From Rhizoctonia solani (taxonomy: Eukaryota > Basidiomycota > Agaricomycetes > Cantharellales > Ceratobasidiaceae): a stretch of 64,000 bases of DNA. A model generated the notes under the pieces. It was given only the letters and a program-made list of their open reading frames with translations. It ran no database searches and was not told where the DNA came from. How positions within the stretch are numbered: the stretch's first letter is position 1; each line of letters starts with the position of its first letter. Below are positions 45,789-64,000 of this stretch, in pieces. The stretch lies in contig NC_057381.1 in the NCBI RefSeq assembly GCF_016906535.1, positions 186,001 to 250,000 on the forward strand, in the 5' to 3' direction. Both the position numbers and the translations under genes were made by a program.

Positions 45789-45895
45789 TGTCATAACCCA
45801 TATCTGGAGGGGTTATTACCATATATATCCACTGTCAAAGATATATATAGTATATATGATGCACAGTGATATATTAATATGAGTTGCTGGGGGAC
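45789..45895 (-). mobile_element. R1' LTR, outer part
   Basis: Starts TGTCATAACCCATATC, homologous to the reverse complement of the R1 end (31580-31692). Cut at GGGAC by the family C element and resumes at 52636. Confidence 0.75.
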
Positions 45896-46344
45896 TGTCA
45901 TGACCTTGATTGGCATGACATAATTTTTTACTATTTTCTACCTTTTTTCTGAGACAATTCCCTTTTTTGGTATATATTTATGACTCATCAAGATCACATG
46001 ACATATTTGATATATGATGTGAAATTGTAAATGACTCACTATTTAGTACTGTTGTTTTTGATGTGGCTTTTCTCCTGTATATATAAACCAGGTCAAGTTG
46101 TTGCTAAAACAGCAAGACTTGACCTCTTTGTCAATTCATCCTCTACTCTCACCTATCCCTTTGTCCAAGCCCTTAGTTGGCTATAGCGCACTTTACTAAG
46201 CATCATCACCCAGGCCATTGTTGCCCTCTACCCTTAAACATACCCCCTGGGCCCTTGTCACCCCTCTCTGTCTCATAGTCCATTGGTGATAGGGCCATGG
46301 ACTTTAAGCCCCCTTGTACCATAGGTCCAAGTTGAGTCAAGACA
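45896..46344 (+). mobile_element. Family C 5' LTR (449 bp)
   Basis: TGTCATGACCTTG to AGTCAAGACA. Promoter-like 'ctgtatatataaacc' near 46075. Nearly identical to the 3' LTR except for the last bases. Confidence 0.88.
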
Positions 46345-46779
46345 CTAGGTCAAGTCTTGCCTTACTTGTACTCTTGTCAACAAACAAGAACTGCGCTTAG
46401 ATAAGCACCAAAGCCTGAAACAGTATCACATTGTAGCCCCTGTGTCATAATCAAAGACAGGAATACAAGTACCAGTAAGGTTGCAGGATAGCCCTTTGCC
46501 AGCAATTGTCCACATACCAGGGTGTCTGCACCCTTAGCCATATGCTGTTAGTCAGCCAAACCTCCACTTACTAAAAACCTGATTAATAATCACACTTGCA
46601 CACAGCTGTTGATATTAGTATAAGGATAGTTTAATGCTAGTGGGGAAGCAAACAGTTAGTAGTTTAGAGCTATAAATCTGTTTTTATCTATCTGATTGAG
46701 TACCAATTTATATCGGGAATGCACTCTAGTGTTTGATTTTTTACATCTCATCCTTTTGCCATCTTTTGGCCCTATTCCA

Positions 46780-48737
46780 TTGTCACCCACTACCTCTATC
46801 TTGAAAAAACCCTTAGTGACATCAACCACATATTAGTAGGTCACATCACTAACCTTGAAGAACATATTGCTTGCATTGAAGAACCAGGGCTAGTACAGAC
46901 CATTGCCCACATTAAACATCACAAGTCATTTGCTGAGCGCCTCAATATAATCTACAAGGCAGATCTTCAGGAACAGAAGAACCTTATCACCAACCTCAAG
47001 TCTCACAATCAAGATCTAGCTCTTACAATCAAAGAGCAAGAAAGGCACATTGAAGAAAAGAACCAACTGTTGGTTGAAAAAGAAATCAAGTTAGACAACT
47101 TACACACATCCATCCAAGACGCTACCCAAGATGGAAGGGGGCAGATTCACTACTACTGGGATTACAAATTTTGGGCAGTATCACACAACAACGCCTTGTT
47201 TGGGTGCAATGGGAGAGACTAGGTTAACCCCCTCCCAAATCCAATCTGGATGGTCTGCCTCATCCTCTCAAACCCATACTCCTGCTCCTGCAGCTGCGCC
47301 ACCACATGTATATTCTCCTATGTCATTTGATCAGATGTCAGATTGTGAGCTTCTTAATATGGTTGCACAAAATATGATTATCTTGAAAAAAGAATTTTTG
47401 CAATTACAAGGTGCTTACAAAGCCCAAGGAGACCAATTGGCATTATTAAGGGCTGAATTGGAAGAACATTGCAATCAATTGCATAATCAACACCTTTTTT
47501 ATTCCAATCAAATCCAAGGAGCTGCTGCTTCCATCCAGGCTGTGCAAGACCAGCTTCTCCATTTATCCACTTCTTGTTCTACAGCTCCCCCTCCCCCACC
47601 TCCACCTGCTGGCACTACCACAGCCACCACTTCCAACCTTCCCCCACCTGCTCCTACATCCTCCAATTCTGATTTAAAGTTGCCAAACCCAACAAGTTTA
47701 GCAGCAAAAAAGAGGACGCCCTTAATTTTATCATTGCTTACCAGGCTTATATAAGGGCAAAAGGAGCCAATTGTTCCCACAAAGAAAAAATCCTGTGGGT
47801 AACCTCATATTTTGAGGGAGCTGCTGAAGACTGGGTACACCCATACAAGGAAAGGAAAGTGTTCAGGGGAGAAGCAGTCCACTGTTGGAAGATATTGACG
47901 TATTTTGGACGGAATTTACTAAGCATTACATGGACACAAATTGTGATGAGAAGTATCCTCAAAAATGGAATAATTTGTGGCAGAAGGCTTCAGTCCAAGA
48001 ATATACTCAAGAATTCCAACAATACTCTGTCTCCTTGGGATATAGCAATGAGACCCTATGCAATAAATACTATGATGGTCTTAAAAATGATATCAAAGAC
48101 ATCATGCTATCAACCATGTTCCAGTGGTGTTGCACCACTGCCCAACAAGTATATGATAAGGCAGAAGAAATTGCTAATCATATTGAATCCACGCATTTAT
48201 CCAACCCATCTGTTTCTTCTTCTACAACTTGCGCACCCCAATGTTACCTCCAATCCCACTACCACTCCTACTTGTACTTGTCTTAATGTAGGAGATAACA
48301 TTTATATGATTGACCCCACTACTTGCTGTGCTAAAAAGGGCACCATTACCTCCATTGTGCGTACAACCTCCAGCAACATGCCAAATGTTAGGTGGAATGG
48401 GGAATCCAAGGACACTATGATTCCATTCCCCTCCCTTAAAAAAGACAAGCGCCCTGCCGCAGCTGCTCCAGTCAAACCAATCATTGCCCCTACCCCTGTC
48501 TTAGCCTCAAGCGCCAAAGGTCCAGGCCACATGGATCTTGATGGAAAAGGCTTTGCAAGCGTCACATGTCATGTGTGCGGTGGTAAAGGACATTTTGTGC
48601 GCAGTTGCCCCTCCAAGCCCATGTCTGGACATGTGGCTAATGTTGAATGGTCTTGGGAAAGGCCCAAGGAGGAGAATTGCATTGAAGTGGTCTCTGATGA
48701 GGAGGAATTGGGAAAAGGGAAAGCCAAGGCTGACTAA
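46780..48737 (+). pseudogene. gag: Family C Gag (frameshifted)
   Basis: A coiled-coil N-terminal part is readable from about 46800 (LEEHIACIEEPG; LTIKEQERHIEEKNQLLVEKE). The next frame (47131-47754) has a Pro-rich linker. Capsid-like coding continues in other frames after an A6 run near 47710 (IAYQAYIRAKGANCSHKEKI), near 47880 (LEDIDVFWTEFTKHY) and near 48235. The zinc knuckle CHVCGGKGHFVRSC lies near 48570-48612. The stop TAA is 48735-48737. At least three frameshifts. Six codons before the stop, GGGAAAA (48710-48716) is in the phase needed for -1 slippage. Confidence 0.8.
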
Positions 48738-48757
48738 GGAGTAAGGCACTTGGCTGT

Positions 48758-51700
48758 ATGCTAGCAGATTTGCATTATGTAAACAATGATCTCAAAATAC
48801 TTTCATTATGTAATACATCTCAAATATATGCATCATTCTCTGCAAATCCGTGTGAAACTCCCAAATCTCAAAAATCAAGTTTTTTGGCTAAACCCTTCCA
48901 AGGAAAAGCCATGATTGACTCAGGAGCTACCTCTTGCTTTATACACCCTCTTTCAGTTAAGACATACTGTCTACCCACATATCAACACCCTATTCCAAAA
49001 AAATTACGCGTTATTGATGGTTGAGAAATTGATTCCGGCCAAATCACTCACTTCACTTGTTTCAAATGCACCATTGGCAGTCATACCAAAGAATTGGAAT
49101 GCCATATTTCTAATATTGGCAACCATCAATTAGTTCTTGGAATGTTGTGGCTAAAAAAAACATAACCCCCAAATCTCTTGGGAAAAACATATGCTTGTCT
49201 TTAACTCCTTGTACTGTTCCAATAATTGCCTATCTGTACCTGCTGTCTTAGAACTCAAAGCAGTAGAAGAAATACCACACCCTTACCAAGAATTTGCTAA
49301 AGTCTTCTCAGAAGAAGAATTGTCCTAACTACCGCCCCACCATCCCTATGATATGGCAATTGAACTGCTTCCTGATGCAAAACCCCAACATGGTCCCATA
49401 TATAGTCTAGGGCCAAGGGAAGATGCTGAACAGGAAACCATTGAGAAGCAGCTCAAAGCAGGATTAATCTGCCCCTCTAAGTCCCCCATGGCATCACCAA
49501 TACTATTTGTCAAGAAGAAAAATGGGAAATTAAGGATGTGTGTGGATTACCAGCGCTTAAATAGCATGACCAAGAAAAACGTCTACCCCCTTCCCTTGCC
49601 ACAAAACCTCATTGAGAAATTACAAGGTGCTAAGATCTTTAGTAAATTTGATCTTAAGGCAGGTTACAACTTAGTCAGAATCAAAGAAAGCAATGAATGG
49701 AAAACAGCCTTCAAGACAAAATATGGACTATTTGAATACTTGGTTATGCCTTTTGGATTAACAAATGCACCAGCAGTCTTTCAGGACATGATGAACAAAA
49801 TCTTCAGGGATCTGTTAGATGTCTATGTCATCATTTACTTGGACAATATTCTAGTATTTTCTTTGAACAAAAAAGACCATGAGGCTCACGTCCAAGAGGT
49901 ACTAAGTAGGTTACAAGACAATAACCTTTTTTGTAACATTGAAAAATATCATTTCCACGTCAAGAAAATCGACTATTTAGGGTTCATTATATCTGAGTTT
50001 GGCATAGAAGTGGACCAATCCAAAGTCACAGATGCCATGAATTGGTCAATGCATAGGAATGTCAAAAACATACAAGAATTCTTAGGATTTGTGAACTTTT
50101 ACAGACAATTTATCCCCAACTTTGGCAATACGGTGCAACCCTTGTATAATTTGCTCAAAAAAGACAACCCTTGGAAATGGGAGTCAGTGGAACAGCAATC
50201 CTTTGATAGTCTAAAGAAATGTCTTACCTTGGCACCCCTACTATTACAGCCAGATACCACAAAACAGTTCTATGTAGAGTGTGATGCATCAGATTACGCC
50301 ACTGGAGCTATACTATCCCAACACAACCCTGAAGGAAAATTAGCCCCTGTAGCATATCTATCAAAATCCCTGTCTCCAGCCAAGAAGAATTACGATATTT
50401 TTGATAAGGAATTACTGGCAGTCATTAGGGCATTCAAAGAATGGCGTCATTTGTTGGAAGGTTCTGAATTGCCAGTCCAAGTTTTAATGGATCATAAAAA
50501 TTTGGAGTATTTTTCCACGTCTCAATCCTTAAACAAACATCAAATTTGATGGGCCAACTTCTTAGTGGATTACAATTTTCAAATTAACTACAGGCCTGGA
50601 GCACAGAATAAAAAGGCAGATATTCTCTCAAGACACTATGATTTAGTACCCCTTGAAGGGGGGTAGAGAACCAAGTTCTCCTGAAACCAGAACTTTTCAT
50701 TTCATCTATCACTCTGGATAAGGAAATCAATGATCTAATTGGCAGGGCAATTTATGAGGATAATTGTCTTAAGGAGATTCTGCACAAACTCCAGAACAAG
50801 GAGAAGGTCATAGATTGGGAACTGAAAGAAGGCTTACCATGGTTTCAAAAGAAGATATTTGTACCAAAAGACAAAACCATTAGGAACCTCATTTTAGAAT
50901 CAAGGCACAACACATTAGCCACAGGACACCCAGGACAAGCCAGAACACTAGAACCTGTCTCAAGGAATTACTACTGGCCATCAATGAAAAGATTTGTCAA
51001 CTCTTATGTCAGTCATTGCAAAACCTGCATCAGATCAAAACCAACCAACCAGGTACCTGTGGGATTATTAAAACCATTACAAATTCCTGAACGTCCCTGG
51101 GAAGACATAGCATACAATATGATTGTAGGATTACCAGTTTCAGAAGGCTTCAATGCTATCCTAACTGTGATTGATTGATTCTCAAAAATGGTTCACTTCA
51201 TTCCCACCCAATCCACAGCGTCTGCCATTGACATTGCCAACTTATTTGTCACATATGTATGGAAATTACACAGCCTTCCCAAGAGTACAGTCTCAGATAG
51301 AGGTCCCACATTCAACGCCAAATTCATTTGCCATCTATATAAAAGGCTGGACATTAAGCCCACATATTCTATGGCATACCACCCTCAAACAGATGGACAG
51401 ACTGAATGCATACAAAGAGAAGCCAAGATTTTATACATATGTTTGGAAATCATTGTCAATCAGACTGGGTATCACTACTACCATTGGCCAAATTTGCTTT
51501 AAATAATTTAAAGCAAACTTCCACAGGCAAATCCCCATTTCAAATATGCTACAGCTATAACCCAAGATTTTCAGTTGGTCAAAAATCAGATGAAGTAGTA
51601 CCTAATGCAGACAAACATGCAGAGTTTCTGGAAAAAGGATACAATGAAGTCAAGGCAGCTCTATCCTTATCCCAAGAAAGAATGAAATACTTATACAGTC

Positions 51701-52173
51701 AAAGACATAGGGATAAAGACAAAATCCAAGTAGGGGACAAGGCCTGGCTGAGTCATCAGAACATATCCACAGACAGACCCTCAATAAAACTCAGTCATAA
51801 AAAACTAGGTCCCTACTTTGTAATTGAGAGGATAGGATCACATGCATACAAACTCCAACTACCTCACATTATGCGCATACATCCTGTCTTCCATATCAGT
51901 CTTCTTACTAAGTTTCATTCCAATCCTCATGGACGCAATCCTCCCCAACCTGCACCTATCATTACAGAGGAAGGCAAGGAAGAGTATGAGGTAGAACAAA
52001 TCTTGGACAGCAAGTGGAAAGGATGTGGTAAAGCAAGGAAACTCTGGTATCTTGTCAAATGGAAAGGATATGACAAAGGAAGCAACTCATGGGAACCAGT
52101 GGACAATGTGGGTAATGCCAAAGAAGCTATAGGGGAGTTTTACAAGGAGCACCCTGAGGCGGTTGGAGCTTGA
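48758..52173 (+). pseudogene. pol: Family C Pol polyprotein with chromodomain (frameshifted)
   Basis: Protease motif MIDSGATSCF near 48910. RT in 49353-50549 (LPFGLTNAP-type block, YLDN at the active site where YxDD is usual). RNase H motif ECDASDYATGAILSQ is intact. Integrase HHCC (ATGHPGQ...HCKTC) lies near 50925-51020 and the core AYNMI has Asn for Asp. The final frame 51406-52173 holds the integrase C-terminus and a chromodomain (EEYEVEQILDSKW...VKWKGYDKGSNSWEPVDNV). TGA stops at 49022-49024, 50547-50549 and 51176-51178 all stand where Arg is expected (CGA to TGA). Frameshifts occur near 49160, in a G6 run near 50660 and near 51410-51500. Confidence 0.85.
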
Positions 52174-52184
52174 AGAGGGGGTAA

Positions 52185-52630
52185 TGTCATGACCTTGATT
52201 GGCATGACATAATTTTTACTATTTTCTACCTTTTTTCTGAGACAATTCCCTTTTTTGGTATATATTTATGACTCATCAAGATCACATGACATATTTGATA
52301 TATGATGTGAAATTGTAAATGACTCACTATTTAGTACTGTTGTTTTTGATGTGGCTTTTCTCCTGTATATATAACCAGGTCAAGTTGTTGCTAAAACAGC
52401 AAGACTTGACCTCTTTGTCAATTCATCCTCTACTCTCACCTATCCCTTTGCCCAAGCCCTTAGTTGGCTATAGCGCACTTTACTAAGCATCATCACCCAG
52501 GCCATTGTTGCCCTCTACCCTTAAACATACCCCTGGGCCCTTGTCACCCCTCTCTGTCTCATAGTCCATTGGTGATAGGGCCATGGACTTTAAGCCCCCT
52601 TGTACCATAGGTCCAAGTTGAGTTGTGACA
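52185..52630 (+). mobile_element. Family C 3' LTR (446 bp)
   Basis: TGTCATGACC to GAGTTGTGACA, directly after the polypurine tract and followed by GGGAC. Confidence 0.88.
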
Positions 52631-52635
52631 GGGAC

Positions 52636-52985
52636 ATTGCACTCCCCCCCCCCCTAGCTGCAGGCCAATGTTAATGCCCACAGGCAAGGTCTGAATAATA
52701 TTTATTATAGAAGAGATTATGTCATCCCCCCCACCTCAAATCTGTAGTAGTTTAGTATAGTATTTGATAAAGGACTGGAGGGGGGGAGGTCATGTGAACT
52801 GGACTTAGAGAATATCACTAAGTCCAGCCATGTTGACCATAATTCTCTTATATGTAGGAACTCGGAGGTTCTGAGTGCATATGTGCGAGTATATGCGTGC
52901 TTGCGGTCATGTTGGTGTGCAACATGAGTGTGTTGGAGGCTTGACAAGGTCAGGACTCATGGAAAGAATGGAGTGGGTTGTGACA
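52636..52985 (-). mobile_element. R1' LTR, inner part, bordering the Rep region
   Basis: Continuation of the LTR at 45789-45895 (about 457 bp in total). On the minus strand it begins TGTCACAACCCACTCC, immediately after a polypurine tract (52986-52999: minus strand aaaaggggggg then caa). So this is the 3' LTR of an element whose inside is the Rep-bearing palindrome. The same tract and LTR start appear, inverted, at 63947-64000. Confidence 0.75.
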
Positions 52986-53338
52986 TTGCCCCCCCTTTTG
53001 CACACAGTTTAGGGGACATGAACTTGTGCCATTACAAATGATGTCTGGATAGATATCTTGTTAGGTGTCAAGTCCTCCTAGGTATGATTGTGCAATGAGT
53101 TGTTCTGAGGTCACCTGACTTGTTCTGAGTCATGTGATCCTTGTTGGAATGTTGTTTTCTTCCTGTGGGAAAGTTCCCACACTACTGTCTTTGTAAGGTA
53201 GCTTCTCAAGTCTTCTGGAAGATCCTGGTTAGCAACATATTTCATGGTTGCTTGGTTACTGCATGGCGCCATTTTATTGTTCAGAGAGATTGGTAAATCA
53301 AGTCATTTTCCTCTGACTCAGTCTCTTGGCCACCATGG

Positions 53339-53346
53339 TATAAAGA
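53339..53346 (+). promoter_or_regulatory. TATA box of Rep gene, left copy
   Basis: TATAAAGA, 34 bp before the ATG at 53380. TGACTCA-type sites lie upstream at 53126 and 53314. The mirror copy is at 63600-63607. Confidence 0.6.
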
Positions 53347-53379
53347 AGAGGGTAGTGGGAGGTGGGATAAGTCATCACA

Positions 53380-55061
53380 ATGTCTCAATGCCCAACTGCC
53401 AGCGCCACTCCCTCCACAGTCTTGGATTCACAGCCTTCAGGGCTGTTGGATGCCACCCCTTATGTTTCCCAGATTGCATCTACTGTGTGGCAGAGTCAAG
53501 AGCTGCCTCTGTCACAGCTCACTCCCAGATCTCTCAAAAGAAGGTTGGATCTGGGCTCCCAAGAAGAAGCAGTAAGTGGTCTTGGTTGATAGCAAAAGGT
53601 TCTTTTACTAAAAGATAACTGTATAGTCACAGATATCTTGCAAGCTTCCCCCCTTGTCCAGGCATTGGTTAGCCATGCCCAGCAACAGGGAAGGCTCAGA
53701 AGATGGAGGAAACTCCATTGTCCCATCCATGGCTCCATTGGAGTCAAGGGACTCTATTGTTCCTGCAGCCCCTGAAGGGGAAGAGGACATTGGGGTTCTT
53801 CCCCAAGAAGGAAGGCGCTTTTGCCGCAAGGGGAAGTGTTACCTCTTGACATATGCCTGTTATGTCAAGGGTGAGGACACAGTGCAAGTCTCTTGTCATG
53901 AGGTTGTCAAGGAGTAAGTGAATTGATAGGATATTGTCTTCTTTTACTAATATCTCCTTTTTAGTCTTGTGGACCACCTCCTCACTCTAAGGAGTGGAGG
54001 GGGACCCCTTTTGGAATGTGCCATGGGGGTTACAGAGTCCCATGACTTGAAAGAAGGACAGTGGCATCCTGACTGGCATTGCCATGTCATTGTTTGGGCC
54101 AGGACTCTTATCTCCTCAGAGGGCCTGAACCTATGGAAGTATAAAGGAGTGCACCCCCATGAGCGTCTTCTTCTGCTCAAGGATAGTAATGGGAGATTTG
54201 CTCCCTTATCTGCCTATGAGTACCTCAAGACAGAGGCAGATGCCTGGGAGGCACAATATGGGACCCTTACAGAAGAGTTCCTATTGGGTCAATGCCCTGC
54301 AGGGTTGAAGGCCAAGACCAATGTAAGTTCTAAGACATGGAGTGAAATTACTTGCTAATAGTCTTCCTTTCACAGCGCAATGAAGACTTTGCCTATGCAA
54401 TGGAAGCAGAGGATGCAGAAGGTTTCTTTGGTTGCTTAAAGGAGCATCAACCTTGCAATATGGCCATGGGGTATAACAACCTCAAGGCCTTTACTGGTTA
54501 CTTCTACAGGGATAAGGGTGCCCTTCCTCAGGGTGTATGTGAGCCCAAGGCCCTTAAGAAGTGAGTCTCCTTCTTTTCTATGGTAGAAGGTAGTATTGAC
54601 ATATTGTTACCAGGGCTACAGTCAATTTGCCACCTGGTGTTCAGGAGTGGGTTACCTCCAATATATTGGAGCATGACCCTGAGTCTGATTGTGGTAAGAT
54701 CCTTGTTCTGTGGGGTCCCTCAGAGACAGGGAAGTCAGCCCTTGCTTGTTCTTGGGGCCACCACATTAGGTTCAGGCAGAACCTTAACTCTGATGATTTT
54801 AGTGACCATACTATGGTTCAGTATGCAGTGCTGGATGATATGGATTGGCCCAAGGTTCCTTTGAAGATGTGGGTGCAGGAAGATTTCAATTTCCACACTA
54901 GTTACAGATCAGAGCGCCATTGCCAATGGGGGCGCTCTACTGTTATTTGTTCCAATTCTAAGCCTTCTGTATTTGCTGATTGTAGTTATGCCACAGTTGA
55001 TGGCAAGAATTGGATAGACACCAATTGTACCTTTGTGTATATTGGTGATAAGTTGTATTAG
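53380..55061 (+). CDS. Geminivirus/genomovirus-like Rep protein (HUH endonuclease and SF3 helicase), left copy
   Basis: Five exons join in frame: 53380-53571, 53645-53913, 53965-54322, 54376-54560, 54614-55061. The four GT-AG introns are 73, 51, 53 and 53 bp, and the first three have TACTAA/CTAAT-type branch sites. Product 483 aa. Motif I YLLTY (130-134), motif II H-C-H (192-194), a geminivirus-type GRS-like stretch (205-224, GVHPHERL), motif III region YEYLK (238-242). Helicase: Walker A GPSETGKS (369-376), Walker B VLDDMDW (407-413), motif C ICSNS (446-450, Asn449). This domain order is that of rolling-circle initiators that nick and unwind circular ssDNA virus genomes. An N-terminal extension of about 125 aa is unusual. 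AATAAA near 55114. No stops or frameshifts, so probably expressible. Exon choice is by eye. Confidence 0.9.
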
Positions 55062-55252
55062 ATAGTTCCTCTTTGCTTTGTCTTTCCTTGTCTTGTCTTT
55101 TTTGGTCCCTGTCTTAATAAAAGTGTCTTTTCTTTTCCTACATCTGGTACTTAGAGATAAAATGATTCTTGGAAGATCAGATAAGACAGATGGTTACTAA
55201 GAAGGAGCAAACATTGGAAGAAAAGGAAGAAGAGAAGGATGTAAGGTTATTG

Positions 55253-55285
55253 GATGGAATGTTACATATTTCATCACATTCCATC
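55253..55285. terminator. Stem-loop between the two convergent genes, left arm
   Basis: 10-bp perfect stem GATGGAATGT / ACATTCCATC with a 13-nt loop, overlapping the stop end of the minus-strand gene. Its position between converging genes resembles the small intergenic region of CRESS viruses, but the loop lacks TAATATTAC. Mirror at 61661-61693. Confidence 0.5.
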
Positions 55286-56956
55286 AGCATAATCCAAGGG
55301 ATTCCATTTGTTCATGGCCTTGTTACTTTCAAGGTAAGACTCATGTCCTCCTTCATCACTTAGTTCATGGATTGCTAAGTTGGATATACTTCTGCTCAGA
55401 TCATTCTGAGCTGCTTGCATGGCCCATTGTTTGAGCCAGTCATGTAGATCCTCTATGCTCATTTTGCATTCTAGGATCATGTAATAGACATCCTCAGGAG
55501 TGAGGTTGTCCACATAGCCACCTAAGCCTGATGGCAGCTTGTTTTTCCAGTTTTCAATTTCTGCAGCCAGCCATTCCCTTACTGTTGAGATTGGTATCCA
55601 CCATTCAGGATCAATTTCCTCAATGTCTAGATGCCATTCTGCCAACTTCCTTGTGTGCTTTAGCACTGGGGCCCTCACTACATCCTCCACAGAGGCACCC
55701 ACATTACCTCTACACACAAAGAACTTGGTACTTTGCATTAGTTTGGGTTGTTTTGGTGGCTCACTGCCAACCCAGCAGAGGTATCCCCTGATTGGACAGT
55801 GTAGGGTTCTTCCAATCCAGTAGCACTTCCATTGTTGACCCATTGGTATGTAATCAAGGGTTGCTGAGGGATCAAGTAGTTTGGCATAAGCCTTGGATTG
55901 TTGGAAGGAGTCACATCTTGTGATGACCTTATGCCAGTCATAGATGTTGGTGATAGGGGTTTGATCATTCCCCATGTCCCAGCCCATGGATGGATCTGGG
56001 GGTGCCCATTGATCCAGGTTATCCTGGGACCAAGGGAACCTGGTCCTGTGCTCACTGGATCTGTCAAGGGGGTAAGAGGTGGCATCTCCAGTTGCCTTGG
56101 AGATCCTGGTCTCTGTTCTGATGGCAGGCATGATGTCTTAGTGATGGGAATGGATAAGAAGGTAGTGGTTCCAGTGGTGGTTTGTGATGACTTCCCAGGC
56201 ATGGGATGCCTTCCTTTATACCCTTATCTTTCCACTTATCAGACCCTTTATTGCCCTTTGCCCTAGGGTCACATGATTTCCTATGTTCTTCAGTAGAGTG
56301 GTTAGTTCTCTGACACACCTCACATTGGATTTCAGTAGACCCTGATTTGTCAGAATTGGATTCACTGTTATTCTCAGCCTCCCAGAGGGCAGACAAGGGA
56401 AGTACTTTATCCAGTTGGTCAATTACTTCCTGAGGAATACATGATCCAGCATTTCCTGTTCCATTTTCAGATGGTTGTCAATATGTTTCTCCAACCTTTT
56501 GACTCCCATTATTAGTTCCATTAAGAATCCATAGACCCTTTTGGTACATGTAAGGTGGTCATTAGTAATCTGTTTCTTGTTTGCCTCAGTTTTTGGTGGG
56601 TGAGTCTCCTCAGAGAATTTGGCAAAGAAGTCTTCAATAAAATCCTTCACTGTCTTATTCCTGGTTGCCTCATCTACCAAAGGGGTGTCCTTTTCCCTGG
56701 TGACAGGGTCCTCCAAGGGTGTGTTATCCCCTGGATTCTCATGCCTAGGGTCTAGGATCCTAGCTGTGGCAAGTTGAAATGGTTCCATATCCGGTTGGTC
56801 AGCCTGTTTAGGAGGGGTAATTCCTACTCCTCCCTGATGTCCCTGTTCCATGCCTTGCATAGGAGATGTCAGCTCCATGACATGATCATGTTCAGGGTTA
56901 TCCAATTGGGGCAAAGTCCCAAATACACGCCTAGGTTGCATCTTATGAAATCCCAT
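55274..56956 (-). CDS. Unknown zinc-knuckle-like protein convergent with Rep, left copy
   Basis: Probable exons 56956-56427, 56364-56222 and 56112-55274, giving about 503 aa (first ATG at 56956, MGFHKMQPRR). Exon 1 is acidic, then helical (VYGFLMELIMGVKRLEKHID). Exon 2 holds a zinc-knuckle-like C-X2-C-X4-H-X4-H-X3-C (191-208, CEVCQRTNHSTEEHRKSC) and a basic tail. Exon 3 is a Trp-rich domain (RFPWSQDNLDQW; QWKCYWIGRTLHCPIRGYLCWVG; IDPEWWIPISTVREWL) without recognised family. The three frames are all well open; intron borders (GTAATT...AACAG; GTATAA...AACAG) are my best fit and could be wrong. Layout of coiled coil then zinc knuckle recalls Gag, and ambisense pairing with Rep recalls a viral capsid gene. 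Function unknown. Confidence 0.65.
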
Positions 56957-57034
56957 ATTGTTGCAAAAGGCCAGATAGAGCACTACAATAGTCTCTATTA
57001 ATTGCAAGTTCCAAGATATACCTATCTTAGTCAG

Positions 57035-57184
57035 TAAAAGGCAAAATAGTGCAACCCACAGAGGAAGTCTTTAGCTATTTGCAAGTAGAAGACAAGAAGT
57101 CTCAGTTAGCAAGAGGCAAAATAGCGCAACCCACAGAGGAAGTCTTTAGCTATTTGCAAGTAAAGCAGTGGACACCTAGGGTCC
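57035..57184. repeat. 75-bp tandem duplication upstream of the zinc-knuckle gene, left arm
   Basis: 'gcaaaatag(t/c)gcaacccaca' begins at 57041 and again at 57116, followed by an identical 'gaggaagtctttagctattt'. Mirror at about 59762-59911. Confidence 0.85.
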
Positions 57185-57388
57185 TAGTGATGAGAAGACT
57201 CTGACAGTACTTCTTATCACTAATCAGATAGAAGGATCAGTGGAGATCCTTTGTTGACAGTTGTTGATAGTTGAATTTCAAATAAATCATGCAGTTGCTC
57301 TTTTTGAGGTGTAGCAACACCTGCTTGTCCCTATAGGTTGTAAGACAAGGGAAATCAAGCTGGCTTTCTAAGCAGCTTGTTCTGCCCC

Positions 57389-57396
57389 TATATATA
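57389..57396 (-). promoter_or_regulatory. TATA-like element for the zinc-knuckle gene, left arm
   Basis: TATATATA about 430 bp upstream of the ATG at 56956 on the minus strand. The long leader may contain an intron. Mirror at 59550-59557. Confidence 0.4.
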
Positions 57397-57479
57397 CCTG
57401 GGCATCACTTGGGTCTATATACATATTTCAAATGGAAGCACAGCCTCTTGGAGCTGTAGCACAGCCTCAAGAAACAGTA

Positions 57480-57922
57480 TGAGTCAAAGAACCATGTGGC
57501 AGTGTTTGATTAGCCAATTGGATGCCAAGAAATACACCAGTGAGGTGAGGTCTTGGCGGAGTTGGTTCTATTTTTAGCACATGATCACATGGAACACTGC
57601 TTAAGTATGACTCATACTCTTGGCATGCACAGCCACAATACAAGCATGACTCATCCAATTTCCTTATATGGTAATCCTATTCCCCAATCCGGCCTGGTTT
57701 TGCCTGGGGATCAGGCACAGCCATCATCATGTGATTGTGGCAGTGCAGGTAGTACTTGGTGACTAATCATCCATGACCACAGTCATGTGACTTGTGGCTG
57801 AGTTGAATACTTGCTGACTAAGCATTTGTCATCATGCTTGGTCATAGTTGATTTGTCATCAATGAGTCAATCATGTGACTTTGCTGCTGACTCATCAAAG
57901 TTCAGCTGACTAAGCTTAGTCA
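57480..57922. promoter_or_regulatory. Cluster of nine TGACTCA/TGACTAA heptamers, left arm
   Basis: Sites start at 57480, 57608, 57647, 57760, 57815, 57863, 57888, 57907 and 57916. The last two form the 16-bp palindrome TGACTAAGCTTAGTCA (57907-57922). Two more sites (53126, 53314) lie upstream of Rep. These look like bZIP (Gcn4/AP-1-type) sites or iterons for Rep. Mirror cluster at 59024-59466. Confidence 0.65.
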
Positions 57923-58005
57923 TCCATCCATTTCATCTTCTTTCCCAATTTGGGAAGAGGATTGCCATTTTTGGTAAGTCTAGGTTGCTTAGTCTTGATC
58001 TGTCT

Positions 58006-58940
58006 TGAAAGTCTTTTTCAAGTTATGTCTCTTTCCTAATTAGGAAGGTGAGTTACCATAAATGGTAATCTGAAGTTGTGTTGTTGGGATAACATGTTGT
58101 GCATCATTGATGTAAGGGCATTTGTCATCCCTACATCCCCTATAGGCAATACATATACACATATACACAGGCGTGCAAATGAAATGCAACATGTGACTGC
58201 ATTTCATGAATGTGAATGCAATGCAAGAACAATGAGGATTTACATATGGATGTATTAGTACAAGATGTAGATATAACTAATTAGAGCATATGTACAAAAT
58301 ATGGTGGTGATCCAATGAGGCTACATGAAGGTATGCCTTGAGGTATGCTGCTGGGTGTTGCATTTGATTTGCAAATCCAAACCAACTATCCCCAGCTCTT
58401 GTAGTTTTTGCCAATTTCAACCATTTCTTGGCCCAATTCAATCAGACAAAAAATGCAAAATTACTCCTATACACTAAAGAAGCTTAAATGCAGGCTTACA
58501 GTGCATATGAATGAGTTTCTGGTGCTCTATGGCTACCCAGTAAACATTAACTCTTCTCCCCCTCTCCCCTGGATTACTCTAGATGTGGGAACTATTGGGA
58601 GTCAAGAGTCAGTAGTTAAGTACATGGTACTATTTAGAGTATATTACTGCACTTTTTTGATGCATGGCTCAGGGAAAGGCAGAGATGTTCATGACATTCA
58701 TTGAAACTGAATGACCAGCCCAAAAGTGAGAGGCCTGTAATAGCAGTAAAAATGCAAAAGAGAGCAAGCAATTGTAGCCAGAACATCAACAGAGTGTTAG
58801 AGATATACTATGTCAAAACTGAGACCAAGGCCATAAAAACTGATGGTGTGAGAGACCATGCAATGGAAAACCACCCAAATATGCTCAATTTTACTATGAA
58901 ATTCCAACCATTCATGAGAGTTTTCCATTACATGGTCTCT
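58006..58940. other. Unique centre of the palindrome (935 bp)
   Basis: No credible gene. Left edge: about 50 bp (58034-58080, with TTCCTAATTAGGAA) is a diverged copy of the block at 57938-57985 (TTCCCAATTTGGGAA). A 9-bp stem TGAAATGCA/TGCATTTCA lies at 58180-58206. Right edge: a 21-bp inverted repeat (58851-58871 and 58920-58940, one mismatch) ends exactly where the right arm begins. Confidence 0.7.
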
Positions 58941-59023
58941 AGACAGATCAAGACTAAGCAACCTAGACTTACCAAAAATGGCAATCCTCTTCCCAAATTG
59001 GGAAAGAAGATGAAATGGATGGA

Positions 59024-59466
59024 TGACTAAGCTTAGTCAGCTGAACTTTGATGAGTCAGCAGCAAAGTCACATGATTGACTCATTGATGACAAATCAACT
59101 ATGACCAAGCATGATGACAAATGCTTAGTCAGCAAGTATTCAACTCAGCCACAAGTCACATGACTGTGGTCATGGATGATTAGTCACCAAGTACTACCTG
59201 CACTGCCACAATCACATGATGATGGCTGTGCCTGATCCCCAGGCAAAACCAGGCCGGATTGGGGAATAGGATTACCATATAAGGAAATTGGATGAGTCAT
59301 GCTTGTATTGTGGCTGTGCATGCCAAGAGTATGAGTCATACTTAAGCAGTGTTCCATGTGATCATGTGCTAAAAATAGAACCAACTCCGCCAAGACCTCA
59401 CCTCACTGGTGTATTTCTTGGCATCCAATTGGCTAATCAAACACTGCCACATGGTTCTTTGACTCA
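59024..59466. promoter_or_regulatory. TGACTCA/TGACTAA cluster, right arm
   Basis: Mirror image of 57480-57922, including the palindrome at 59024-59039. Confidence 0.65.
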
Positions 59467-59989
59467 TACTGTTTCTTGAGGCTGTGCTACAGCTCCAAGA
59501 GGCTGTGCTTCCATTTGAAATATGTATATAGACCCAAGTGATGCCCAGGTATATATAGGGGCAGAACAAGCTGCTTAGAAAGCCAGCTTGATTTCCCTTG
59601 TCTTACAACCTATAGGGACAAGCAGGTGTTGCTACACCTCAAAAAGAGCAACTGCATGATTTATTTGAAATTCAACTATCAACAACTGTCAACAAAGGAT
59701 CTCCACTGATCCTTCTATCTGATTAGTGATAAGAAGTACTGTCAGAGTCTTCTCATCACTAGGACCCTAGGTGTCCACTGCTTTACTTGCAAATAGCTAA
59801 AGACTTCCTCTGTGGGTTGCGCTATTTTGCCTCTTGCTAACTGAGACTTCTTGTCTTCTACTTGCAAATAGCTAAAGACTTCCTCTGTGGGTTGCACTAT
59901 TTTGCCTTTTACTGACTAAGATAGGTATATCTTGGAACTTGCAATTAATAGAGACTATTGTAGTGCTCTATCTGGCCTTTTGCAACAAT

Positions 59990-61672
59990 ATGGGATTTCA
60001 TAAGATGCAACCTAGGCGTGTATTTGGGACTTTGCCCCAATTGGATAACCCTGAACATGATCATGTCATGGAGCTGACATCTCCTATGCAAGGCATGGAA
60101 CAGGGACATCAGGGAGGAGTAGGAATTACCCCTCCTAAACAGGCTGACCAACCGGATATGGAACCATTTCAACTTGCCACAGCTAGGATCCTAGACCCTA
60201 GGCATGAGAATCCAGGGGATAACACACCCTTGGAGGACCCTGTCACCAGGGAAAAGGACACCCCTTTGGTAGATGAGGCAACCAGGAATAAGACAGTGAA
60301 GGATTTTATTGAAGACTTCTTTGCCAAATTCTCTGAGGAGACTCACCCACCAAAAACTGAGGCAAACAAGAAACAGATTACTAATGACCACCTTACATGT
60401 ACCAAAAGGGTCTATGGATTCTTAATGGAACTAATAATGGGAGTCAAAAGGTTGGAGAAACATATTGACAACCATCTGAAAATGGAACAGGAAATGCTGG
60501 ATCATGTATTCCTCAGGAAGTAATTGACCAACTGGATAAAGTACTTCCCTTGTCTGCCCTCTGGGAGGCTGAGAATAACAGTGAATCCAATTCTGACAAA
60601 TCAGGGTCTACTGAAATCCAATGTGAGGTGTGTCAGAGAACTAACCACTCTACTGAAGAACATAGGAAATCATGTGACCCTAGGGCAAAGGGCAATAAAG
60701 GGTCTGATAAGTGGAAAGATAAGGGTATAAAGGAAGGCATCCCATGCCTGGGAAGTCATCACAAACCACCACTGGAACCACTACCTTCTTATCCATTCCC
60801 ATCACTAAGACATCATGCCTGCCATCAGAACAGAGACCAGGATCTCCAAGGCAACTGGAGATGCCACCTCTTACCCCCTTGACAGATCCAGTGAGCACAG
60901 GACCAGGTTCCCTTGGTCCCAGGATAACCTGGATCAATGGGCACCCCCAGATCCATCCATGGGCTGGGACATGGGGAATGATCAAACCCCTATCACCAAC
61001 ATCTATGACTGGCATAAGGTCATCACAAGATGTGACTCCTTCCAACAATCCAAGGCTTATGCCAAACTACTTGATCCCTCAGCAACCCTTGATTACATAC
61101 CAATGGGTCAACAATGGAAGTGCTACTGGATTGGAAGAACCCTACACTGTCCAATCAGGGGATACCTCTGCTGGGTTGGCAGTGAGCCACCAAAACAACC
61201 CAAACTAATGCAAAGTACCAAGTTCTTTGTGTGTAGAGGTAATGTGGGTGCCTCTGTGGAGGATGTAGTGAGGGCCCCAGTGCTAAAGCACACAAGGAAG
61301 TTGGCAGAATGGCATCTAGACATTGAGGAAATTGATCCTGAATGGTGGATACCAATCTCAACAGTAAGGGAATGGCTGGCTGCAGAAATTGAAAACTGGA
61401 AAAACAAGCTGCCATCAGGCTTAGGTGGCTATGTGGACAACCTCACTCCTGAGGATGTCTATTACATGATCCTAGAATGCAAAATGAGCATAGAGGATCT
61501 ACATGACTGGCTCAAACAATGGGCCATGCAAGCAGCTCAGAATGATCTGAGCAGAAGTATATCCAACTTAGCAATCCATGAACTAAGTGATGAAGGAGGA
61601 CATGAGTCTTACCTTGAAAGTAACAAGGCCATGAACAAATGGAATCCCTTGGATTATGCTGATGGAATGTGA
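59990..61672 (+). CDS. Unknown zinc-knuckle-like protein, right copy
   Basis: Exact mirror of the left copy: probable exons 59990-60519, 60582-60724 and 60834-61672 (about 503 aa). The exon 1 frame ends at TAA 60523 if unspliced, and the exon 2 frame is -1 relative to it. A classical slippery heptamer is not present at the overlap (60469-60523), so a 62-bp intron is preferred over frameshifting. The second junction is less certain (donor 60725 or 60755, acceptor 60833). Confidence 0.65.
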
Positions 61673-61693
61673 TGAAATATGTAACATTCCATC
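61661..61693. terminator. Stem-loop between the two convergent genes, right arm
   Basis: Mirror of 55253-55285. Confidence 0.5.
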
Positions 61694-61884
61694 CAATAAC
61701 CTTACATCCTTCTCTTCTTCCTTTTCTTCCAATGTTTGCTCCTTCTTAGTAACCATCTGTCTTATCTGATCTTCCAAGAATCATTTTATCTCTAAGTACC
61801 AGATGTAGGAAAAGAAAAGACACTTTTATTAAGACAGGGACCAAAAAAGACAAGACAAGGAAAGACAAAGCAAAGAGGAACTAT

Positions 61885-63566
61885 CTAATACAACTTATCA
61901 CCAATATACACAAAGGTACAATTGGTGTCTATCCAATTCTTGCCATCAACTGTGGCATAACTACAATCAGCAAATACAGAAGGCTTAGAATTGGAACAAA
62001 TAACAGTAGAGCGCCCCCATTGGCAATGGCGCTCTGATCTGTAACTAGTGTGGAAATTGAAATCTTCCTGCACCCACATCTTCAAAGGAACCTTGGGCCA
62101 ATCCATATCATCCAGCACTGCATACTGAACCATAGTATGGTCACTAAAATCATCAGAGTTAAGGTTCTGCCTGAACCTAATGTGGTGGCCCCAAGAACAA
62201 GCAAGGGCTGACTTCCCTGTCTCTGAGGGACCCCACAGAACAAGGATCTTACCACAATCAGACTCAGGGTCATGCTCCAATATATTGGAGGTAACCCACT
62301 CCTGAACACCAGGTGGCAAATTGACTGTAGCCCTGGTAACAATATGTCAATACTACCTTCTACCATAGAAAAGAAGGAGACTCACTTCTTAAGGGCCTTG
62401 GGCTCACATACACCCTGAGGAAGGGCACCCTTATCCCTGTAGAAGTAACCAGTAAAGGCCTTGAGGTTGTTATACCCCATGGCCATATTGCAAGGTTGAT
62501 GCTCCTTTAAGCAACCAAAGAAACCTTCTGCATCCTCTGCTTCCATTGCATAGGCAAAGTCTTCATTGCGCTGTGAAAGGAAGACTATTAGCAAGTAATT
62601 TCACTCCATGTCTTAGAACTTACATTGGTCTTGGCCTTCAACCCTGCAGGGCATTGACCCAATAGGAACTCTTCTGTAAGGGTCCCATATTGTGCCTCCC
62701 AGGCATCTGCCTCTGTCTTGAGGTACTCATAGGCAGATAAGGGAGCAAATCTCCCATTACTATCCTTGAGCAGAAGAAGACGCTCATGGGGGTGCACTCC
62801 TTTATACTTCCATAGGTTCAGGCCCTCTGAGGAGATAAGAGTCCTGGCCCAAACAATGACATGGCAATGCCAGTCAGGATGCCACTGTCCTTCTTTCAAG
62901 TCATGGGACTCTGTAACCCCCATGGCACATTCCAAAAGGGGTCCCCCTCCACTCCTTAGAGTGAGGAGGTGGTCCACAAGACTAAAAAGGAGATATTAGT
63001 AAAAGAAGACAATATCCTATCAATTCACTTACTCCTTGACAACCTCATGACAAGAGACTTGCACTGTGTCCTCACCCTTGACATAACAGGCATATGTCAA
63101 GAGGTAACACTTCCCCTTGCGGCAAAAGCGCCTTCCTTCTTGGGGAAGAACCCCAATGTCCTCTTCCCCTTCAGGGGCTGCAGGAACAATAGAGTCCCTT
63201 GACTCCAATGGAGCCATGGATGGGACAATGGAGTTTCCTCCATCTTCTGAGCCTTCCCTGTTGCTGGGCATGGCTAACCAATGCCTGGACAAGGGGGGAA
63301 GCTTGCAAGATATCTGTGACTATACAGTTATCTTTTAGTAAAAGAACCTTTTGCTATCAACCAAGACCACTTACTGCTTCTTCTTGGGAGCCCAGATCCA
63401 ACCTTCTTTTGAGAGATCTGGGAGTGAGCTGTGACAGAGGCAGCTCTTGACTCTGCCACACAGTAGATGCAATCTGGGAAACATAAGGGGTGGCATCCAA
63501 CAGCCCTGAAGGCTGTGAATCCAAGACTGTGGAGGGAGTGGCGCTGGCAGTTGGGCATTGAGACAT
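61885..63566 (-). CDS. Geminivirus/genomovirus-like Rep protein, right copy
   Basis: Exons on the minus strand: 63566-63375, 63301-63033, 62981-62624, 62570-62386 and 62332-61885, identical to the left copy (483 aa, all Rep and SF3 helicase motifs). TATA at 63607-63600. Two intact identical copies point away from CRESS 'fossil' decay. Confidence 0.9.
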
Positions 63567-63946
63567 TGTGATGACTTATCCCACCTCCCACTACCCTCTT
63601 CTTTATACCATGGTGGCCAAGAGACTGAGTCAGAGGAAAATGACTTGATTTACCAATCTCTCTGAACAATAAAATGGCGCCATGCAGTAACCAAGCAACC
63701 ATGAAATATGTTGCTAACCAGGATCTTCCAGAAGACTTGAGAAGCTACCTTACAAAGACAGTAGTGTGGGAACTTTCCCACAGGAAGAAAACAACATTCC
63801 AACAAGGATCACATGACTCAGAACAAGTCAGGTGACCTCAGAACAACTCATTGCACAATCATACCTAGGAGGACTTGACACCTAACAAGATATCTATCCA
63901 GACATCATTTGTAATGGCACAAGTTCATGTCCCCTAAACTGTGTGC

Positions 63947-64000
63947 AAAAGGGGGGGCAATGTCACAACCCACTCCATTCTTTCCATGAGTCCTGACCTT
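63947..64000 (+). mobile_element. Polypurine tract and start of an R1' LTR, truncated by the window end
   Basis: AAAAGGGGGGG, then CAA, then TGTCACAACCCACTCC, the same arrangement as PPT-LTR junctions of families A and B. Inverted relative to the LTR at 52636-52985. Confidence 0.65.

What the first reader, a model, noticed from the sequence alone, without database searches (positions are those of the whole stretch)
53380..55061. Intact, intron-bearing CRESS-DNA-virus-type Rep gene in a fungal mobile region
Seen: five exons with canonical introns join into an unbroken 483-aa frame with HUH motifs, a GRS-like stretch, Walker A/B and motif C in the right order. Known: this set defines replication initiators of geminivirus/genomovirus-like circular ssDNA viruses; Rep-like insertions are known in some fungal genomes but are often decayed. 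Inference: this copy may be an active or domesticated part of a transposable unit, since it has gained introns, a TATA box and a poly(A) signal and has no damage, while its neighbours are riddled with mutations.
Basis: partly seen in the sequence, partly recalled or inferred. Interest (0 to 1): 0.93.

Follow-up and report, generated by a model that had tools for sequence, protein, structure and literature searches.

The report
Virus-type Rep gene inside fungal retrotransposon
In the crop fungus Rhizoctonia solani, a gene resembling the DNA-replication starter of small circular DNA viruses rides backwards inside a retrotransposon (a jumping gene copied through RNA), and natural selection has kept its protein sequence, which suggests that the protein does something useful.

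Summary
It lies in a non-autonomous Ty3/gypsy-type LTR retrotransposon of Rhizoctonia solani (~6.2 kb, ~465-bp LTRs, 5-bp target duplications, polypurine tract), antisense to the element's RNA strand and opposite a Gag-like gene. The genome holds 23 matches to the helicase exon, 18 of them full-length and stop-free. A relative with the same leader and LTR/primer-site junction carries Gag and reverse transcriptase and is the likely mobiliser. Rep exons 3-5 are under strong purifying selection (dN/dS 0.03-0.08). Two old Rep lineages (dS up to 0.79) sit on one young backbone (dS 0.04). Rep membership rests on motifs plus one relative just over Pfam's geminivirus-Rep cut-off. Rep's role is unproven; no canonical nonanucleotide origin was found in six copies. 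Best guess: Rep serves the element, perhaps on extrachromosomal circles. My limited literature search found no Rep inside an LTR retrotransposon.

The parts
53380..55061 (+).
   Evidence: motifs. The junction of exons 1 and 2 is doubtful.
53662..53719 (+). Proposed true exon 2 (frame ALVSHAQQQGRLRRWRKLH), followed by a proposed intron 53720-53768 and exon from 53769
   Evidence: CAG at 53659-53661 in 16 of 16 copies, GT 53720 in 16 of 16, AG 53768 in 17 of 17; frame constraint. Inferred.
53965..54322 (+). Exon with HUH motif II and motif III (most of the endonuclease domain)
   Evidence: dN/dS 0.08 between lineages.
54614..55061 (+). Exon with Walker A, Walker B and motif C (helicase)
   Evidence: 23 genome matches; dN/dS 0.05; relatives.
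53339..53344 (+). TATAAA upstream of Rep
   Evidence: expression not tested.
55116..55121 (+). AATAAA downstream of Rep
   Evidence: use not tested.
45789..45895 (-). Outer part of the element's 3' LTR, cut off by the gypsy insertion
45896..52630 (+). Ty3/gypsy element inserted in that LTR, TSD GGGAC on both sides (45891-45895, 52631-52635)
52631..52985 (-). Inner part of the 3' LTR
52986..53000 (-). Polypurine tract (reads purine-rich on the minus strand) next to the 3' LTR
   Evidence: same layout as in the nested gypsy element.
55277..56137 (-). Gag-like gene, 287-aa open frame
   Evidence: 28 genome matches; deposited in R. solani as part of ~490-aa proteins; no Pfam match.
56067..56477 (-). 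Gag-like gene, open frame with a zinc-knuckle-like CEVCQRTNHSTEEH
   Evidence: knuckle by eye only.
56426..57070 (-). Gag-like gene, first open frame (215 aa)
   Evidence: deposited proteins begin here.
57171..58165 (-). Element leader; the window copy ends at 58165 without primer site or 5' LTR
   Evidence: 45 genome matches.
58938..64000 (-). Second, inverted copy of the element (Rep at about 61885-63566, minus strand), 100% identical over 5063 nt, continuing past the window end

Best explanation
A non-autonomous Ty3/gypsy-type LTR retrotransposon of Rhizoctonia solani has captured an intron-bearing Rep gene of geminivirus/genomovirus type in antisense. Shown: LTRs, 5-bp target duplications, polypurine tract, many recent copies, purifying selection on Rep, two diverged Rep lineages on one backbone, and a relative with the same leader and LTR/primer-site junction that carries Gag and reverse-transcriptase frames. 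Inferred: the element's RNA is packaged and copied by that partner's proteins; Rep keeps its introns because they lie antisense in the copied RNA; Rep is transcribed from its own promoter; and its nickase/helicase activity benefits the element, perhaps by acting on unintegrated circular DNA. The window copy is one arm of an inverted pair, has lost its 5' LTR and can probably no longer move by itself.
For: Both LTRs seen in 7 of 19 fetched loci, identity 97.6-99.6% in six and 92.2% in one; perfect 5-bp TSD in 4 of 7. Polypurine tract on the minus strand, as in the nested gypsy element. 23 Rep matches, 18 full and stop-free. dN/dS between lineages 0.08, 0.03, 0.05 in exons 3, 4, 5, against a backbone dS of 0.04, with frame controls. 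Partner at C9:2103043: exact junction, 91% leader, Retrotrans_gag 3e-14, RT and RNase H. P0007 over the Gemini_AL1_M cut-off.
Against: No expression data. TSD imperfect in L012 and absent in L011 and L024. No canonical nonanucleotide in six element copies. The Gag-like gene has no Pfam match, and its deposited models have introns on the element's own strand, which is odd for a retrotransposon gene. The window's own pieces stay below Pfam cut-offs. Many copies are broken in some exon. The partner was read only in two stretches.
Confidence: 0.72

Rival explanations
1. Passenger: a viral or host-domesticated Rep gene was captured and is only carried along; its purifying selection was for the host (for example against circular ssDNA mycoviruses) or predates capture.
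For: Two Rep lineages are far older (dS up to 0.79) than the backbone (dS 0.04), so most of the constraint may have been laid down elsewhere; within lineages dN/dS is weaker, 0.21 and 0.27 over exons 2-5; no origin found.
Against: Within-lineage ratios in exon 5 are still 0.10 and 0.16. Of 23 matches, the two not seen with element sequence (L025, L026) are fragments with stops.
Confidence: 0.3
2. An endogenous circular ssDNA mycovirus: Rep and the opposite-strand gene are the two genes of an integrated virus, and the LTRs are secondary.
For: Two genes in convergent orientation, as in many such viruses (recalled); fungal genomes are known to hold Rep sequences (PMC3198968, passages).
Against: The whole ~6.2-kb unit has LTRs, TSDs and polypurine tract; no nonanucleotide origin; no IMG/VR relative in four scans.
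Confidence: 0.08
3. The protein is not a CRESS Rep but another HUH/P-loop protein that resembles one.
For: No Pfam match over cut-off for the window's pieces; no solved-structure relative by sequence; models unusable.
Against: Motif I, II, III, Walker A, B, C order; P0007, 25.8 bits against Gemini_AL1_M with cut-off 24, profile positions 15-105 of 107.
Confidence: 0.08

Closest known systems
Geminivirus-like transposon of Tuber melanosporum (Liu et al. 2011, PMC3198968; section 8 read)
   Same: Geminivirus-type Rep amplified in a fungal genome as part of a mobile unit (42 Rep genes or remnants).
   Different: There: 37-bp terminal inverted repeats, transposase ORFs, no obvious TSD, interrupted Rep ORF. 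Here: LTRs, 5-bp TSD, Rep antisense with introns, open in many copies.
Non-autonomous LTR retrotransposons with captured or extra ORFs (bdelloid rotifers, PMC5408684; listing, abstract start and two passages)
   Same: LTR element carrying an additional ORF.
   Different: There the passages name env, DEDDy, GDSL, CC and TM ORFs; 'geminivirus', 'Rep protein' and 'intron' do not occur. Here the extra gene is a Rep, antisense, and no reverse transcriptase was found in the Rep-bearing units.
Rep of geminiviruses/genomoviruses (CRESS-DNA viruses)
   Same: HUH motifs, central domain and helicase motifs in the same order.
   Different: Long N-terminal extension, four or five introns, no canonical nonanucleotide found in the unit, host is a retrotransposon.

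Membership tests
CRESS-DNA virus Rep protein | HUH endonuclease motifs I, II, III | tested here: met
   Motifs I and II in all copies with sequence; motif III tyrosine with lysine three residues on in 13 of 13 other readable copies, lysine replaced in the window copy.
CRESS-DNA virus Rep protein | C-terminal SF3 helicase motifs A, B, C | tested here: met
   GPSETGKS, VLDDM, STVICSN, by eye; fold model unusable.
CRESS-DNA virus Rep protein | Profile-level similarity to a Rep family | tested here: inconclusive
   Window pieces below cut-off; relative P0007 25.8 bits vs cut-off 24; six-frame genome searches with PF08283 and PF00799 gave nothing, nor did their controls.
CRESS-DNA virus Rep protein | HUH fold | tested here: inconclusive
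   Model of relative P0019 with pLDDT 50; Foldseek 0 matches at E 0.001 or better.
CRESS-DNA virus genome | Nonanucleotide stem-loop origin | tested here: not met
   No NANTATTAC or TAATATTAT in six element copies, both strands; 1.16 of the first expected by chance per copy. Other origins and circle junctions not tested.
CRESS-DNA virus genome | Capsid gene | tested here: inconclusive
   Opposite-strand gene has no Pfam match; Gag-like knuckle by eye only.
Ty3/gypsy-type LTR retrotransposon (non-autonomous) | Long terminal direct repeats with TG..CA ends | tested here: met
   ~465 bp, both seen in 7 of 19 fetched loci.
Ty3/gypsy-type LTR retrotransposon (non-autonomous) | Target-site duplication of 5 bp | tested here: met
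   Perfect in 4 of 7, 4 of 5 bases in L012, absent in L011 and L024.
Ty3/gypsy-type LTR retrotransposon (non-autonomous) | Polypurine tract and primer-binding site | tested here: inconclusive
   Polypurine tract met. The conserved sequence after the 5' LTR occurs 43 times, but does not begin with TGG and no primer tRNA was identified.
Ty3/gypsy-type LTR retrotransposon (non-autonomous) | Autonomous partner with matching ends | tested here: met
   C9:2103043: exact LTR/primer junction, 91% leader, Gag and RT/RNase H; 3' LTR not read.
Rep/transposase TIR transposon of Tuber type | Terminal inverted repeats and transposase ORFs | tested here: not met
   Ends are direct repeats; no transposase among the ORFs scanned.

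The most novel reading that the evidence does not exclude
A two-mode mobile element: an LTR retrotransposon that uses a captured virus-type Rep to amplify its own extrachromosomal circular DNA by rolling circle, so that RNA-based and DNA-based replication meet in one element, with Rep modules exchanged between element lineages.
Probability: 0.12. Interest if true: 0.93.

Novelty: new variant of a known kind. Interest (0 to 1): 0.74.

Why it matters
A replication initiator of the kind used by circular ssDNA viruses, kept by selection and carried inside an RNA-copied retrotransposon, would link two replication strategies usually seen apart. It makes testable how virus Rep genes spread and persist in fungi: many copies, two Rep lineages, mosaics and a likely mobilising partner lie in one 16-contig genome.

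Tried and rejected
Integrated virus: rejected as main reading because of LTRs and TSDs and no origin found. Tuber-type Rep/transposase transposon: the ends do not fit. IMG/VR relatives: four scans, candidates in each but none confirmed by tblastn. Solved-structure sequence searches: best E 0.16 and 0.064, judged chance, and none. AlphaFold models: pLDDT 50 and 34, not usable; Foldseek of the better one: best E 0.5. Genome searches with PF08283 and PF00799: uninformative, since no control rang. PHROGs: nothing better than E 0.2. One integration for the inverted pair: the outer flanks share no 5-bp duplication. Papers: nine listings; only the top rows of large result sets were seen, so absence from print is not shown.

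Slips: one search was meant for the LTR but by wrong coordinates searched a piece of the Gag-like region; one search is the LTR search (40 of 281 candidates scored, so a lower bound). In one search a third, looser motif was written in the script but not searched.

Full report
Setting. The window is C12:186001-250000 of a 40.7-Mb genome in 16 contigs. Two deposited Rhizoctonia solani proteins found with the Gag-like ORF come from contigs of 3,532,025 and 3,358,403 bases, the lengths of C3 and C1 here. I take the host to be R. solani; the strain is not determined.

The gene. Open exon pieces with GT/AG ends lie at 53380-55061. They carry CYLLTYA, WHCHVIVW, a motif III tyrosine, GPSETGKS, VLDDM and STVICSN in Rep order (motif names recalled). 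I kept the exons apart because this is a virus-type replication gene in a crop pathogen.

Family. The window's pieces give no Pfam match over cut-off: exon 5 reaches Gemini_AL1_M at E 0.044, exon 3 nothing. These searches see only proteins of 0.55 to 1.75 times the piece's length, so full-length relatives were out of reach. One relative, P0007, 57% identical to exon 4 and 75% over the half of exon 5 that it covers, scores 25.8 bits against Gemini_AL1_M (cut-off 24). Four IMG/VR scans confirmed no relative, and sequence searches of solved structures gave only chance-level rows. It is a geminivirus/genomovirus-type Rep by motifs and one profile match, far from the viruses sampled.

The unit. Nineteen loci around matches were fetched and compared with the window. 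Direct repeats of ~465 bp, TGTCATAACCCA..TGGGTCATGACA, flank a unit of ~6.2 kb. Both repeats are seen in 7 of 19 loci, 97.6-99.6% identical in six and 92.2% in L024; 4 of 7 have a perfect 5-bp target duplication, L012 has 4 of 5 bases, L011 and L024 none. A purine-rich tract abuts the left repeat on the minus strand, in the layout of the nested gypsy element. So the element is read on the minus strand, its 5' LTR on the right, and Rep runs against it. On the element's own strand lie ORFs that R. solani annotators deposited as ~490-aa spliced proteins, with a zinc-knuckle-like stretch but no Pfam match; introns on that strand are unexpected in a retrotransposon gene and unexplained.

The partner. 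The junction of LTR end and primer-site region occurs 43 times (up to 3 mismatches; 0 in the reversed control). Of these 43, 12 lie within 5 kb and 16 within 11 kb of a Rep match. The leader has 45 matches (53 candidates, 40 scored). At C9:2103043 an exact junction and a 91% leader are followed by a 675-aa ORF with Retrotrans_gag (E 3e-14) and a CCHC knuckle, and 0.6 kb beyond the end of that stretch lies an open RT/RNase H frame. This is a likely mobiliser; the gap between the stretches and its 3' end were not read. L037 and L042 hold shorter derivatives in which no Rep match was found.

Selection. Exon-wise Nei-Gojobori counts compared two groups that I set by similarity: lineage 1 (window, L009, L010, L015, L020) and lineage 2 (L012, L014, L016, L017, L019, L021, L022, L027). 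Left out: mosaics L011, L018, L023, L024 and fragments L013, L025, L026; the second window arm was not counted. Between groups dN/dS is 0.19, 0.33, 0.08, 0.03 and 0.05 for exons 1 to 5 and 0.11 for exons 2-5 together (40 pairs, not independent; exon 1 35 pairs). Within groups it is 0.21 and 0.27 for exons 2-5, and close to 1 in exon 2 (0.76, 0.87). In exons 3-5 the ratio is below 1 only in the Rep frame and in the minus frame that shares its third positions; 12 of the 15 other-frame readings exceed 1. Synonymous divergence between groups is 0.79 in exon 3 but 0.04 in the two Gag-like ORFs tested, whose own ratios are 0.29 and 0.64. Divergence rises from about 53800 and falls towards 54800. Two old Rep lineages thus sit on one young backbone, with mosaics: exchange or conversion of the Rep region.

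Gene model. The acceptor needed by the 483-aa model is AG in 5 of 16 copies; a CAG at 53659-53661 is present in 16 of 16. Over 53645-53773 the Rep frame has ratio 2.15 and the frame entered from that CAG 0.33, with QGRLR(R/K)WRKLH in 13 of 15 copies shown. A GT at 53720 (16 of 16) and AG at 53768 (17 of 17) would restore the phase. I propose exons 53380-53571, 53662-53719, 53769-53913, 53965-54322, 54376-54560 and 54614-55061, about 461 aa. The donor GTCCCA is weak and the numbers are small, so this is inference.

State of the window copy. Its 3' LTR is split by a gypsy element (45896-52630, TSD GGGAC). It ends at 58165 without 5' LTR; the nearest LTR/primer junction is about 72 kb away. It is one arm of an inverted pair, 5063 nt at 100%; the other arm reaches past the window end and has its own insertion in the LTR. 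The outer flanks share no 5-bp duplication. An assembly artefact cannot be excluded for so perfect a palindrome, though the different insertions in the two arms speak against it. The motif III lysine position is T here and K in 13 of 13 other readable copies. This copy is unlikely to be the active one.

Mechanism. Shown: a multi-copy, recently moved LTR element; antisense, constrained Rep; a Gag/RT-bearing relative with the same leader. Inferred: mobilisation in trans; introns kept because they lie antisense in the copied RNA (recalled logic); Rep serves the element. Against a classical rolling-circle role: no NANTATTAC or TAATATTAT in six copies, 1.16 of the former expected by chance. The passenger reading stays open at about 0.3, since much of the constraint may predate the present backbone.

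What is known. Liu et al. 2011 (PMC3198968; outline, passages and section 8 seen) list Rep-like genes in several fungi, 5 in Laccaria bicolor and 42 in Tuber melanosporum, the latter in a unit with transposase ORFs and inverted repeats; 'Rhizoctonia' and 'intron' do not occur in the main text. Two R. solani genome papers were searched for terms only: 'geminivirus' and 'Rep protein' have 0 occurrences (PMC4014442; PMC7884421). Nine listings were made in a library of openly licensed papers, mostly seen as top rows.

Verdict. The structure is well supported and, as far as I could search, new in its combination; the function of Rep is open.

Noticed in passing
window 52946-58008 and 58938-64000: Inverted pair of the Rep-bearing element, 5063 nt at 100% identity within the window, two Rep genes facing away from a 929-nt centre.
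   Followed up: partly
window 58166-58937: Centre of the palindrome belongs to another repeat family: 23 genome matches, several as adjacent inverted pairs (for example C7:2209513 and C7:2210202), like a foldback element.
   Followed up: partly
L028 273-812: About 540 bp inserted in the LTR of the second arm, at a place different from the gypsy insertion in the first arm.
   Followed up: no
window 57025-57162: Two 63-nt direct repeats 75 nt apart at the start of the Gag-like gene.
   Followed up: no
L037 1462-4565; L042 4878-7556: Shorter relatives with this LTR and leader pieces but no Rep match: likely non-coding derivatives.
   Followed up: partly
window 55277-57070, minus strand: The Gag-like gene is deposited in R. 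solani with introns on the element's own strand; two entries are named HET-E-1 without visible support.
   Followed up: no
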